Origin: Opitutus sp. GAS368
Lineage (GTDB): Bacteria; Verrucomicrobiota; Verrucomicrobiia; Opitutales; Opitutaceae
Direction of reading: 5' to 3'
Assembly: GCF_900104925.1 (NCBI RefSeq)
Contig: NZ_LT629735.1
Span: 3,765,001 to 3,829,000 of the forward strand
Length of the DNA: 64,000 nt
Made by a program: the position numbers and the translations under genes
Notes under the pieces: model-generated
Seen by the model: only the letters and a program-made list of their open reading frames with translations
Databases searched by the model: none
Told to the model about the DNA's origin: nothing
Shown here: positions 1,285 through 15,917 of the stretch, piece by piece
Layout: each line of letters begins with the position of its first letter
How positions within the stretch are numbered: position 1 is the stretch's first letter

Positions 1285-1458
1285 GGATTTCACGGATGGA
1301 CACGGATAAATGCCCCACACGGTTTGGTTGTCATTCTGAACGGAGTGAAGAATCCAGAATGATTTCCGCGGGCCAACATGATGCTGGATCCTTCGCTACG
1401 CTCAGGATGACAGACAGCGTTGATTTCATCCGTGATCATCCGTGCAATCCGTGGTCAA
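1277..1458. repeat. Nested palindromic element, intact copy (182 bp)
   Basis: The outer arms begin TTGACCACGGAT and end ATCCGTGGTCAA, each with two or three ACGGAT-type units. Between them sits an inner doublet (1330-1411). A second copy of the same nested design lies at 14102-15520; it is interrupted by an IS110 element and is 180 bp long once that element is removed. The left arm overlaps the start of the Ppx/GppA gene. The equal sizes suggest that the nested structure moves or is copied as one unit, which is inference. Confidence 0.8.
1330..1411. repeat. Inner REP-like doublet: two inverted 28-bp arms around a 26-bp loop
   Basis: The left arm (1330-1357) starts GTCATTCTGA and ends GAATCCAG. 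The right arm (1384-1411) is its imperfect inverse, starting CTGGATCCTTCGCTACG and ending AGGATGAC. Arms of this family recur at 14156-14166 joined to 15406-15413, at 15439-15466, and around the GIY-YIG gene at 36272-36300 and 36616-36643. The arrangement resembles REPIN/BIME doublets. The right arm is an unoccupied match to the predicted IS110 target. Confidence 0.85.
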
Positions 1459-12887: not shown

Positions 12888-14027
12888 CTACGCGGCGAAA
12901 TACTTGCGCCGGACAAAGCGCCAGGCCGTGACGAAGAACGCTGTGAGCGGCACTGCCAGCATCATGCCGAGCACGCCACCGAGCGCCTTGCCCCAGAAAA
13001 ACACGGCCACGATGATCACCACCGGGTGCAGCCCGGTCTGCTTGCCCATGATGCGCGGCGTGAGGAACCAGCCTTCGATGGCTTGCACCGCCGCGAAGAC
13101 GCCGAGGCAGACCCCCAGCATGGTCAGGCCGCCGCCGTCCGGCTGCAGGTAGGCGAGAGGCAATGCCACGCTCAGGCCGAGAATGCTGCCGAGGTAGGGC
13201 ACGATGTTGAGCAGTCCCATCAGCAGGCCGATCGCCAGACCGAACTTGAGGCCGGCGAGGGAGAACCCGGTGGCGAAGAAGAGGCCCATGATCAGGCCGA
13301 TAAGCAGCTGGCCACGGAAAAACGCCACCAAGATGCCGAGGAACTCGCGCACGAGGAACACGACGTCGTCACGGTGTTCCTTTTGCAGGAAGGGCAGGTG
13401 CTCGGGCAGGGCCTGCGTCGGGTCGTCGTTTGAAAGCAGGAAGAAGAACAGGTAGACGGGGATGATGGCGAGCGACGCCGCGAATCCGAAGAGTCCGAAA
13501 ATGCCCGCGCCGGCCGACTTGAGGGTGGGGGCCAGGTTGCCGAGCAGGTCCTGCGCCTGATGGGTCAGGCCGTCGAGCGTGGCCTTGACGGTGGGGTTGT
13601 CGAGATAGGGTCGCACGATTGCCAGCCATTCGGGGAAATGCTGTTCACTCCATGCCACCGTCTTTTGCCACAGGGTCGGCAGGTAGGCGATGAACTCGAG
13701 GATTTCGGAGACGAGGACGGGCAGGAAAGTGACCAGCAGCCCCGCGACCAGCAGCAGGAAGACGAGGTAGAGCAGCACGACGGCCACCGGACGCTTCACC
13801 TTGAGCCGGTGCTCGAAGACCGTGACCACCGGCCGCATGAGCAAGGCGAGTATGCCCGCGACCGCCAGCGGCCAGATGACGACCGAGAACGCGCTGATGA
13901 AGCTGGCGACGCCCGCCAGCAGCACGTAGAGCAGCCAGCCGATGGCGCAGAGCGCCGTGAAACCCAGCGCGAAACCCACCAGTTTGCGCTGGGCGGGCGA
14001 GAGGAGGGGGGTGGGCTCGGAAGACAT
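12888..14027 (-). CDS. AI-2E family transporter (PerM/YdiK type)
   Basis: 379 residues with about eight transmembrane helices. The C-terminal half carries the family signature: a hydrophobic LLMGLLNIVPYLGSILG stretch around residue 270, then QAIEGWFLTPRIMGKQTGLHPV. Members are inner-membrane proteins variously linked to export of autoinducer-2 or to sodium/proton antiport; which applies here is unknown. The ATG at 14027 is chosen because upstream codons translate a purine-rich repeat (14036-14060) and an ACGGAT arm. Confidence 0.88.
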   Translation of the reverse strand: MSSEPTPLLSPAQRKLVGFALGFTALCAIGWLLYVLLAGVASFISAFSVVIWPLAVAGILALLMRPVVTVFEHRLKVKRPVAVVLLYLVFLLLVAGLLVTFLPVLVSEILEFIAYLPTLWQKTVAWSEQHFPEWLAIVRPYLDNPTVKATLDGLTHQAQDLLGNLAPTLKSAGAGIFGLFGFAASLAIIPVYLFFFLLSNDDPTQALPEHLPFLQKEHRDDVVFLVREFLGILVAFFRGQLLIGLIMGLFFATGFSLAGLKFGLAIGLLMGLLNIVPYLGSILGLSVALPLAYLQPDGGGLTMLGVCLGVFAAVQAIEGWFLTPRIMGKQTGLHPVVIIVAVFFWGKALGGVLGMMLAVPLTAFFVTAWRFVRRKYFAA

Positions 14028-14174
14028 CGGAGGACGGATGACAGAGAACAGAGGACGGAAGAGGCAGCAAGCCCGGGGATGGTGGAAAGGCGGCCGATTA
14101 TTTGACCACGGATTGCACGGATGAACACGGATGACCCCGATGCCTGTCATCCTGAGCGCAGAGAAGCAGCGGTG

Positions 14175-15131
14175 TCAGCCGACAAGGGTAAAGTGTGGGT
14201 CTTTGAGCATGCGGTTGAGCACGACAATCATTTTGCGCATGACGGCGAGCAGGCAGACGTTGGCGGGTTTGCCGGCGGCCTGGAGTCGCTGATAGAACAG
14301 CGACAGGACCGGGTTGTGCTGGGAGGCACTGACTGCGGCCATGTACAGGACGTTGCGGACCTCCACGCGGCCACCGCGGGCATGGCGCGGCCGGGAGGTT
14401 TCGCCGCTGTCGTGGGCATGCGGGGCCACTCCGACCAAGGCGGCGATGCGCTTGTCGTCCTCTTCGCCCAGTTCCGGCAGGTACGCCAACAGCGTCGTCG
14501 CCAGCACCGGACCGACCCCTTGCAACTGCTGCATCCGCTCTGCCTTGGCCCGCAGGGCGGGATGCGCCCGCACCTGCTGCGCCACCAACTCGTCGGCCTT
14601 GGCCAGGGCGGCGGCTTGTTGCTCGCGTTGCGCCTGCAGCAAGGCCTGCAAGGTCGGGCCTGCTGTTTCCAGCCGGTTGGCCGTTTGCGTGCCTTGATCT
14701 ACCAGCTGCCGGCGATAATCCAGCAGCTCGCGCAACGCGGTTACCTCGGGCAGCGGCGGCTTCTCCACGCGGGGATGCATCGCGCAAGCGTAGCGATAGA
14801 TCAGCCCCACATCAATCTTGTCGGTTTTGGCCAGCGTGCCCTCCGCCCGGGCGAAGTTACGCACCCGCCCGGGCTGCAAGCGGCAGACCGGTACGCTCGC
14901 TTGGTGCAGCTGCTCCAGCAACCGGCGTTCATACCCGCCCGTCGCTTCGCATACCACGCGCACTCCCGGCAGCGGCTGGACGAGGGTGATCAGCGTGGCA
15001 ATGCCCGCTGCCGTGTTCGGGACCTGCCGGCACTTCTGGCCGGCAATGGTGTAGTCCAGGCGCGCCTTGGAGATATCCAAGCTGACGTACCGCACAGGTT
15101 CGGTCGACTCTACCTTGTAATACGAGTTCAT
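14175..15131 (-). CDS. IS110-family transposase (DEDD serine recombinase)
   Basis: 318 residues. The N-terminal RuvC-like DEDD domain has D19 (SLDISKA), E62 (VCEATGGYE), and D104 and D107 (KTDKIDV). The C-terminal Tnp domain has a helix-hairpin-helix region (LQGVGPVLATTLLAYLPE) and GVAPHAHDSGETSRP with the conserved nucleophile Ser near 242. These spacings match IS621-type recombinases closely. The ATG at 15131 is preferred over one at 15167 because the added residues overlap the predicted target-loop stem. No frameshift or stop interrupts it, so it looks functional. Confidence 0.95.
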   Translation of the reverse strand: MNSYYKVESTEPVRYVSLDISKARLDYTIAGQKCRQVPNTAAGIATLITLVQPLPGVRVVCEATGGYERRLLEQLHQASVPVCRLQPGRVRNFARAEGTLAKTDKIDVGLIYRYACAMHPRVEKPPLPEVTALRELLDYRRQLVDQGTQTANRLETAGPTLQALLQAQREQQAAALAKADELVAQQVRAHPALRAKAERMQQLQGVGPVLATTLLAYLPELGEEDDKRIAALVGVAPHAHDSGETSRPRHARGGRVEVRNVLYMAAVSASQHNPVLSLFYQRLQAAGKPANVCLLAVMRKMIVVLNRMLKDPHFTLVG

Positions 15132-15402
15132 GACTCTTTCAGCGGTTCGAGGTTTGACCAGGCACAAGACCGCGACCCGGCTTCACTACGGGCTCGAGGG
15201 CCCAAGGATCCAGCGATCTGTCGGTCTTGCCGTCCACCGTGCGGCCTGCACGGCGAACGCCCTGGTGGGCGGCCTCCAGTCAATCCACCCGGACTGACTT
15301 GGCAACCCAGCCCAAGCCGGCCTCCTCCGACGAGCCATCGGGCCCATTCTCGGAGCCCGGCTCGGGCCAAACCCTTTTCAACTTTCATCGCCCAAGACAT
15401 AC
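15132..15402 (-). ncRNA. Candidate bridge RNA of the IS110 element
   Basis: In the transposase sense the leader folds into a target-binding loop at 15231-15161. It has a basal stem GGCAAGACCG with CGGTCTTG(TG)CC. The left guide CTGGATCCTT (15213-15204) equals ten bases of the left target flank. A short hairpin GGGC...GCCC follows (15203-15190), then the right guide GTAGTGAAG (15189-15181). The right guide pairs with the consensus right flank CTTCGCTAC with one G-U wobble. Two further hairpins lie upstream in the RNA. The donor loop is not convincingly identified: a match ACCGCTG to the element's right end lies at 15146-15140. RNA ends are guesses. Confidence 0.65.
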
Positions 15403-15538
15403 AAGGATCCAGAATGACGCAGGCCGACTGACAGTGCACTGGATTCTTCGCTCTGCTCAGAATGACAAGCAAAGTGAGAAGGTGGTGTATTCGTGAATAT
15501 CCGTGTCATCCGTGGTCGAAACCTTCTCGCCTTGACAA

Positions 15539-15566
15539 TCTAGGGGAGAGGCGGCTCTCTCCTAGA
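15539..15566. promoter_or_regulatory. Palindromic candidate operator upstream of padR
   Basis: TCTAGGGGAGAG-GCGG-CTCTCTCCTAGA: two 12-base arms with one mismatch, centred about 32 bp before the padR start. A TTGACA hexamer (15532-15537) touches its left edge, but no convincing -10 follows. PadR proteins usually bind palindromes at their own promoters, so autoregulation is plausible. A transcript hairpin is the alternative. Confidence 0.45.
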
Positions 15567-15584
15567 AACTCTAGGCAAGCGCCC

Positions 15585-15917
15585 ATGACTCACAACAAAG
15601 CCGACCTCCTGCAGGGCACCCTCGACCTGCTTATCCTGAAATCGCTCCAGAACGAGCCCATGCACGGCTTTGGCATCGCCGTCCGGATCGGGCAGATGTC
15701 GAAGGACATGCTGACGGTGGAGCAGGGTTCGCTCTATCCCGCGCTCTACCGGCTCGAGGACCAAGGGTGGATCAAGGCCGAGTGGGGCGTCTCGGAAAAC
15801 AACCGGAAGGCGAAATTCTACGCGCTGACGGCCGCGGGCCGGAAACAGCTCGCGACCGAGGAGCAGAGCTGGGCCAAGCTCTCGACGGCGATCAACCTCG
15901 TGCTGGGCGGCGCCTGA
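15585..15917 (+). CDS. PadR-family transcriptional regulator
   Basis: 110 residues, a compact winged-helix protein. It begins MTHNKADLLQGTLDLLILKS, followed by MHGFGIAVRI and the recognition-helix region VEQGSLYPALYRLEDQGWI, then the wing ENNRKAKFYALTAAGRKQL. This is the short PadR type found next to MacB-like orphan permeases in Acidobacteria and Verrucomicrobia. The ATG at 15585 fits the family; an upstream in-frame ATG at 15462 would add repeat-encoded residues. It probably represses the two permease genes that follow. Confidence 0.9.
   Translation: MTHNKADLLQGTLDLLILKSLQNEPMHGFGIAVRIGQMSKDMLTVEQGSLYPALYRLEDQGWIKAEWGVSENNRKAKFYALTAAGRKQLATEEQSWAKLSTAINLVLGGA

What the first reader, a model, noticed from the sequence alone, without database searches (positions are those of the whole stretch)
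15132..15402. IS110 leader folds into a bridge-RNA target loop whose guides match the REP-like host palindrome
In the transposase sense, a basal stem (15231-15222 with 15172-15161) closes a loop. Its 5' arm CTGGATCCTT equals the left target flank over ten bases, and its 3' arm GTAGTGAAG is complementary to the right-flank consensus CTTCGCTAC with one G-U wobble. A GGGC/GCCC hairpin separates the arms. Order and strand logic (5' guide pairs with the bottom strand of the left target, 3' guide with the top strand of the right target) agree with the published IS621 bridge-RNA model. The right guide fits the family consensus (as at 1391-1399) better than the occupied site. The element would then be RNA-guided to a multi-copy palindrome. 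The donor loop was not found with confidence.
Basis: partly seen in the sequence, partly recalled or inferred. Interest (0 to 1): 0.88.

Follow-up and report, generated by a model that had tools for sequence, protein, structure and literature searches.

The report
REP-targeting IS110 element with bridge RNA
A jumping gene carries its own guide RNA that appears to base-pair both with a repeated host palindrome and with the element's own ends, which would explain why every copy in this genome sits in that palindrome; it is a new example of a recently discovered system rather than a new kind.

Summary
Window 14167-15405 (minus strand) is an IS110-family insertion sequence. Six near-identical copies lie in the closed 4.15 Mb genome, and 6 of 6 split the same REP-like palindrome at a CT core. 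The leader's target loop covaries in 14 relatives. In distinct relatives the right guide is the reverse complement of the right target over all seven bases in 38 of 53. With one element per distinct guide, 131 of 150 non-core bases match (permuted mean 44, maximum 70). The left guide covaries more weakly. Genomes with REP-guided relatives hold 105-190 REP arms; three with re-guided relatives hold 0-17. This is an IS621-like bridge-RNA element in Opitutaceae. Of interest: natural reprogramming of a 7-nt right guide, and a donor loop that contains the transposase start codon in several relatives. Unexplained: 3 of 6 occupied sites carry a T that mismatches the guide. Transcription, RNP formation and catalysis were not tested.

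The parts
14167..15405 (-). IS110-group insertion sequence, 1239 bp counted with one CT core
   Evidence: Boundaries from comparison of six copies
15406..15411 (-). Left target TGGATC (half of a REP arm)
   Evidence: Same in 6 of 6 copies
15404..15405 (-). Left CT core
   Evidence: Shared by both junctions; the right guide and right donor guide keep AG opposite it in nearly all relatives
15397..15405 (-). Right donor CTTGTATGT (core plus left end of the element)
   Evidence: Conserved in relatives; TATGTC is also a possible -10 box, with TTGTCG 17 bp upstream across the circle junction (by eye, not tested)
15310..15367 (-). Conserved 5' stem-loop of the bridge RNA
   Evidence: Covarying helix in 14 relatives
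15164..15230 (-). Target-binding loop with basal stem 15230-15222 / 15172-15164
   Evidence: 9 of 9 pairs changed on both sides in some relative
15204..15213 (-). Left target guide CTGGATCCTT
   Evidence: 9 bases equal to the left flank in 6 of 6 copies, 10 in 4 of 6; covaries in relatives
15190..15203 (-). Hairpin GGGC-CCTCGA-GCCC between the target guides
   Evidence: Covarying helix; the own row is one base out of register in the alignment
15181..15187 (-). Right target guide AGTGAAG (7 nt working part of GTAGTGAAG)
15101..15160 (-). Donor-binding loop, closed by TGGTC 15160-15156 with GACCG 15105-15101
   Evidence: Helix 4; coordinates
15140..15146 (-). Left donor guide ACCGCTG, identical to the right end of the element
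15124..15136 (-). Donor hairpin GAGT-CATGA-ACTC, whose loop holds ATG 15131
   Evidence: Helix 5, 100% of cells paired
15114..15123 (-). Right donor guide GTAT-T-ACAAG
   Evidence: Complementary to CTTGTATG with one interrupting base and a G-U pair
14175..15131 (-). Recombinase gene (318 aa from ATG 15131; GTG 15095 is an alternative start)
   Evidence: PF01548 and PF02371 above cut-off; nearest solved relative IS621
14167..14173 (-). Left donor ACCGCTG (right end of the element)
14160..14166 (-). Right CT core and right target CTTCTCT at this copy
   Evidence: T at position 5 mismatches the guide
14146..14166 (-). Remaining half of the interrupted REP arm
   Evidence: Same family in 6 of 6 copies; 184 arms within 2 mismatches in the genome

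Best explanation
An IS110-group insertion sequence whose leader encodes a bridge RNA with a 5' stem-loop, a target-binding loop and a donor-binding loop. By analogy with IS621 (inferred): the element leaves as a circle, the joined ends rebuild a promoter, and the RNA is made and bound by the DEDD/serine recombinase. [quoted passage not shown] Because the target guides spell a REP arm present more than 100 times, copies collect in REP arms. Shown here: anatomy, site choice of six copies, guide/target covariation, helix covariation, and guide/donor matches with examples of covariation. Inferred: transcription, RNP formation, catalysis.
For: Six of six copies in one palindrome at CT, with the guide-matching LT variant in 6 of 6 against 36 of 101 intact arms. 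Right guide versus right target: 38 of 53 exact over 7 bases, 46 of 53 at least 6, at most 1 of 53 when displaced by 1-6 bases; per distinct guide 131 of 150, permuted maximum 70 in 20,000, 19 of 30 exact in all five non-core bases. Left guide 153 of 198, permuted maximum 126 in 3,000. Helices: 63 cells changed on both sides against 21.7 shuffled and 7-13 slid. Donor guides match both ends and covary in examples. Handshake bases: C after the right target guide in 53 of 54, facing G each time, and T facing A in the other. DEDD and Ser positions kept. REP-guided relatives in REP-rich genomes.
Against: Three of six occupied sites have T at right-target position 5, against 1 of 101 intact arms. 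The left guide matches all six non-core bases in only 11 of 46. The left donor guide does not pair with the core, and L046 departs from the left-donor match; right donor positions do not follow the guide in L127, L129-L131. No permutation test was run on the donor guides. No Rfam family; single-sequence fold of the loop not significant. No RNA data. Permutations do not correct for kinship beyond collapsing identical guides.
Confidence: 0.93

Rival explanations
1. Protein-guided site choice: the transposase itself recognises the REP palindrome, and the leader similarities are remnants of target or end sequences.
For: Many insertion sequences choose sites by protein alone (recalled); REP arms are hairpin-forming; three own sites mismatch the guide at position 5.
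Against: The right guide is complementary, not identical, to the right target, sits inside a covarying loop at one register, and changes with the target in 30 distinct guides.
Confidence: 0.04
2. The seven bases after the right end belong to the element rather than to the target, so their match to the leader is an internal repeat.
For: Eleven Candidatus Synoicihabitans rows share CTTCTGT after the right end.
Against: In the own genome these bases vary among copies (CTTCTCT, CTTCACT, CTTCGCT) and run on into a REP half; joining the flanks at one core restores a REP pair.
Confidence: 0.02
3. The leader is a cis-regulatory structure (attenuator or start-codon occlusion) and not a guide.
For: Donor hairpin and closing stem surround the start region.
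Against: It does not predict loop arms that track flanking DNA outside the element. It could be true in addition.
Confidence: 0.01

Closest known systems
IS621 of Escherichia coli (IS110 group; PMC11208160, PMC11208158)
   Same: Recombinase homologue (E 2.7e-28); bridge RNA in the long left end in the order 5' stem-loop, target loop, donor loop; CT core; REP target; discontiguous right donor pairing; handshake positions.
   Different: Right guide of 7 nt rather than 4 (passage); left end of 274 nt against about 190 nt in L149 (by eye); different REP sequence; left donor guide without core pairing; donor loop containing the start codon in some relatives, whereas the IS621 ATG follows the closing stem.
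seekRNA elements of the IS110 and IS1111 types (PMC11187229)
   Same: RNA-directed site choice and natural reprogramming between relatives (passages).
   Different: IS1111 elements carry the RNA in the right end; here the right end is 8 nt and the RNA lies in the left end.
ISCro4 transposase (PDB 9t56)
   Same: Second solved-structure match of the recombinase, E 2.4e-26.
   Different: Not compared at RNA level here.

Membership tests
IS110 family, IS110 group | DEDD RuvC-like domain and C-terminal domain with catalytic Ser | tested here: met
   PF01548 and PF02371 above cut-offs; D19, E62, D104, D107, S242 aligned with IS621 D11, E60, D102, D105, S241 (the PDB chain is numbered two higher, taken as a tag)
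IS110 family, IS110 group | Long non-coding left end, short right end | tested here: met
   274 nt with core versus 8 nt if ATG 15131 is the start
IS110 family, IS110 group | CT core at both junctions | tested here: met
   Six of six copies
Bridge-RNA systems (IS621 type) | Target loop whose two arms match left bottom and right top target strands and covary with them | tested here: met
   the left side is weaker
Bridge-RNA systems (IS621 type) | Donor loop matching the joined element ends | tested here: met
   Own match and covarying examples; no permutation test
Bridge-RNA systems (IS621 type) | Core dinucleotide included in all four guide pairings | tested here: not met
   Kept in the right target and right donor guides, not in the left donor guide and not in all left target guides; a detail of IS621 as described
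Bridge-RNA systems (IS621 type) | RNA transcribed from the circle junction and bound by the recombinase; RNA-dependent recombination | not testable with these tools
   Needs RNA sequencing and assays
REP-targeted IS (as IS621) | Insertion in a multi-copy palindrome | tested here: met
   Six of six copies; 184 arms within 2 mismatches, reversed control 0
IS1111 group | Long non-coding region and RNA in the right end | tested here: not met
   Right end is 8 nt; subterminal inverted repeats not tested

The most novel reading that the evidence does not exclude
In this lineage the donor-binding loop doubles as the translation start region of the recombinase, so one RNA would be either guide (loop folded or RNP-bound, start hidden) or message, a built-in autoregulation. 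In L015, L012, L122 and L011 a stop codon lies just upstream, and the ATG/GTG/TTG starts before the first catalytic Asp lie inside the donor loop (L012 also has a GTG directly before that Asp). A change of target that alters the donor handshake base could also move the start: own and L118 have handshake G facing left-target C where relatives have the A of ATG, and an ATG in the hairpin loop instead.
Probability: 0.35. Interest if true: 0.6.

Novelty: new member of a known kind. Interest (0 to 1): 0.38.

Why it matters
It adds a naturally reprogrammed set of bridge-RNA elements, largely from Verrucomicrobiota; words beginning with Verrucomicrobi or Opitut do not occur in the main texts of PMC11208160 and PMC11187229. 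Its 7-nt right guide lets the right half of the target be read from the RNA in most relatives. Thirty distinct natural right-guide/target pairs are a ready test set for specificity, and a donor loop that contains the start codon makes a guide-versus-message switch testable.

Tried and rejected
Single-sequence folding of the 140-nt region gave no significance (z -0.31), so comparative evidence was used. Rfam gave no match up to E 1 for window 14000-15600. A search for exact repeats between leader and left flank found clear pairs in many relatives but also chance repeats; the column-based test with permutation replaced it. Pairs 85-88 with 99-101 of A1 were left out of the counted structure because the 3' side is invariant guide sequence; columns 1-7 with 299-306 of A3 are read as the RD/RDG complementarity, not as an RNA helix. 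In A1-A3 the own row of the guide hairpin is one base out of register, which makes some of its cells 'unpaired'. The handshake test used a pattern that misplaced the right donor guide in L020, L025, L026, L041 and L042 and missed L022, L138 and L143; the five misplaced rows stay in the 33. L119 (69% identity, right target CTTCGCTG) was dropped from the set because too little leader precedes its anchor. Rows without a right end (8 of 62) or with a truncated one (L020) are not in the right-guide counts; 46 of 62 rows are in the left-guide count. A syntenic empty site was sought: L153 has no REP pair at that place, so it neither supports nor refutes. No REP arm within 3 mismatches was found in the 3.4 kb around the two best of nine Y1-transposase places; the other seven were not looked at, so the REP family is not assigned to a RAYT. 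Structure prediction was not run because solved homologues exist.

Full report
What is there. Window 14167-15405 (minus strand, with one CT core) is an insertion sequence of 1239 bp. The ORF from ATG 15131 encodes 318 aa with PF01548 and PF02371 above their cut-offs. Its solved relatives at E up to 0.01 are IS621 (8wt6, E 2.7e-28) and ISCro4 (9t56, E 2.4e-26). D19, E62, D104, D107 and S242 align with the IS621 catalytic residues. The closed genome of 4.15 Mb holds six copies, identical over the element except for one position inside the gene. The nearest named relative is in an Oleiharenicola sp. MAG, 89% identical.

Insertion sites. Six of six copies read TGGATCCTT at the left, and at the right CACCGCTG, then CTTC-N-CT and the rest of a REP arm ending in YTCAGGATGAC or CTCAGGATGAC. 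Each therefore lies at the CT of one arm of TGGATYCTTCNCTNCGYTCAGRATGAC. That arm occurs 92+92 times within two mismatches, against 0 for the reversed pattern; many listed arms form inverted pairs. Exact intact arms are 36 TGGATCC and 65 TGGATTC; 6 of 6 occupied arms are TGGATCC, the variant that the left guide spells (Fisher p 0.003). Joining the two flanks at one core gives a REP pair. The syntenic relative L153 lacks the REP pair, so it gives no empty-site test.

The target loop. In 14 close relatives, 25 pairs in five helices were counted: 93.7% of cells paired (shuffled 78.4), 63 cells changed on both sides (shuffled 21.7; partners slid by 1-3 columns 7-13), and all nine basal-stem pairs changed on both sides in some relative. 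The whole leader adds a conserved 5' stem-loop and a further hairpin; RNAalifold predicts 74 pairs, 47 with changes on both sides. Alone, the 140-nt loop region does not fold better than shuffles (z -0.31); the 302-nt leader does (z -4.55). The order 5' stem-loop, target loop, donor loop is the one published for IS621.

Guides follow targets. Relatives came from one scan of genome contigs (best 80 of 134 kept) and a search of 189 related genomes (loci of the 30 best). Of these 110 loci, 70 had a left-donor-guide anchor with enough leader, 62 of them distinct. The right guide was taken by alignment column and the right target from the element's right end. All 7 bases match in 38 of 53 and at least 6 in 46 of 53; registers displaced by 1-6 bases give at most 1 of 53. 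Identity per position 1-9 is 0.98, 1, 0.96, 0.96, 0.94, 0.79, 0.91, 0.11, 0.19, so the guide is 7 nt. Eleven rows are copies from one Candidatus Synoicihabitans genome. With one element per distinct guide (n 30), 131 of 150 non-core bases match, against a permuted mean of 44 and maximum of 70 in 20,000 permutations; 19 of 30 match in all five. Left guides, with register free by plus or minus 3, match 153 of 198 (33 distinct; permuted mean 111, maximum 126 in 3,000); 11 of 46 rows match all six bases. The left side is thus weaker, and neither test corrects for kinship beyond collapsing identical guides.

The donor loop. It lies just 3' of the target loop. ACCGCTG (15146-15140) equals the right end of the element (14173-14167). 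GTAT-T-ACAAG (15123-15114) pairs with CTTGTATG at the left end with one interrupting base and a G-U pair; IS621 also pairs discontiguously there. Hairpin GAGT/ACTC separates the guides and TGGTC/GACCG closes the loop. Examples of covariation: CCT-N-ACAAG with CTTGTAGG in L128, L019 and L044; CTAG with CTAG in L057 and L036; ATAAG with CTTAT in L012; ACCACTG in L015 and L016, ACCGTAG in L031 and ACAGTTG in L037 on the left side. Against: L046 does not match on the left side, and L127 and L129-L131 do not follow at the outer right-donor base. No permutation test was run here. The base after the right target guide is C in 53 of 54 rows, facing left-donor G, and T facing A in the other. The base after the right donor guide pairs with the last left-target base in 20 of 33 (permuted mean 9.8, p 5e-5, with five misplaced guides left in). 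These are the handshake positions of PMC11208158 (passages).

Genome-level prediction. Genomes whose element carries a REP-spelling right guide have many arms within one mismatch: G012 105, G014 140, G113 190. Genomes whose element carries another guide have few: G066 1, G044 0, G011 17. G003 without a transposase match has 6, and G124 with a distant relative 0. These eight genomes were chosen by me, and kinship is a confounder.

What does not fit. Three of six occupied sites have T at right-target position 5, a mismatch to the guide, found in 1 of 101 exact intact arms (Fisher p 0.0004). Gene conversion between copies, whose flanks are themselves REP sequence, could spread such a base; this was not tested. 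The left donor guide does not pair with the core.

Start codon. In own, ATG 15131 lies in the loop of the donor hairpin, and a GTG at 15095 follows the closing stem; which is used is open. In L015, L012, L122 and L011 a stop codon lies just upstream and the ATG/GTG/TTG starts before the first catalytic Asp lie in the donor loop (in L012 with a further GTG directly before that Asp). In L016 and L120 there is none after the loop, but upstream starts were not excluded. In IS621 the annotated ATG directly follows the closing stem. So the donor loop contains the start in part of this family. A guide-versus-message switch is inference. One search for papers with 'bridge RNA', 'start codon' and 'insertion sequence' since 2024 found none; supplementary files and ISfinder could not be read.

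Literature seen. PMC11208160: outline and abstract, sections 5, 6, 7, 12 and 20, and passages. PMC11208158: passages. PMC11187229: passages. PMC3733652: passages; it calls O. terrae, of the Verrucomicrobia, highly enriched in GTAG-type REPs. Listings only. That IS110 elements insert in REPs is stated in the section read.

Verdict. It is a new member of a known kind with a local variation worth testing.

Noticed in passing
L001, L003, L006 right flank; window 14162: Right-target position 5 is T in 3 of 6 occupied sites but in 1 of 101 exact intact REP arms. Unexplained; gene conversion between copies is one guess.
   Followed up: partly
window 15131-15093; L015, L012, L122, L011: Transposase start codons lie inside the donor-binding loop in part of the family.
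   Followed up: partly
L127, L129, L130, L131, L142, L146: These relatives sit before CTGACCC; in L142 the flank shows repeated GGCCTGACCCCTTCTGCATAAC, perhaps another multi-copy host repeat used as a target.
   Followed up: no
L012, L013, L014, L033, L038, L045, L046, L069, L079, L081, L083: One Candidatus Synoicihabitans palmerolidicus genome holds at least eleven copies with near-identical right guides at CTTCTGT sites; several open frames end early, so many copies look decayed.
   Followed up: no
own genome; window 1330-1356 (-) with 1385-1411 (+): REP arms often come as inverted pairs with about 28-32 bases between them, a possible REPIN or BIME arrangement. Nine Y1-transposase places exist in the genome; no arm was found in the 3.4 kb around the two best.
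   Followed up: partly
L153 1270-1420: At the syntenic intergenic place a same-genus genome has other inverted-repeat-like sequence instead of the REP pair, suggesting turnover of intergenic repeats.
   Followed up: no
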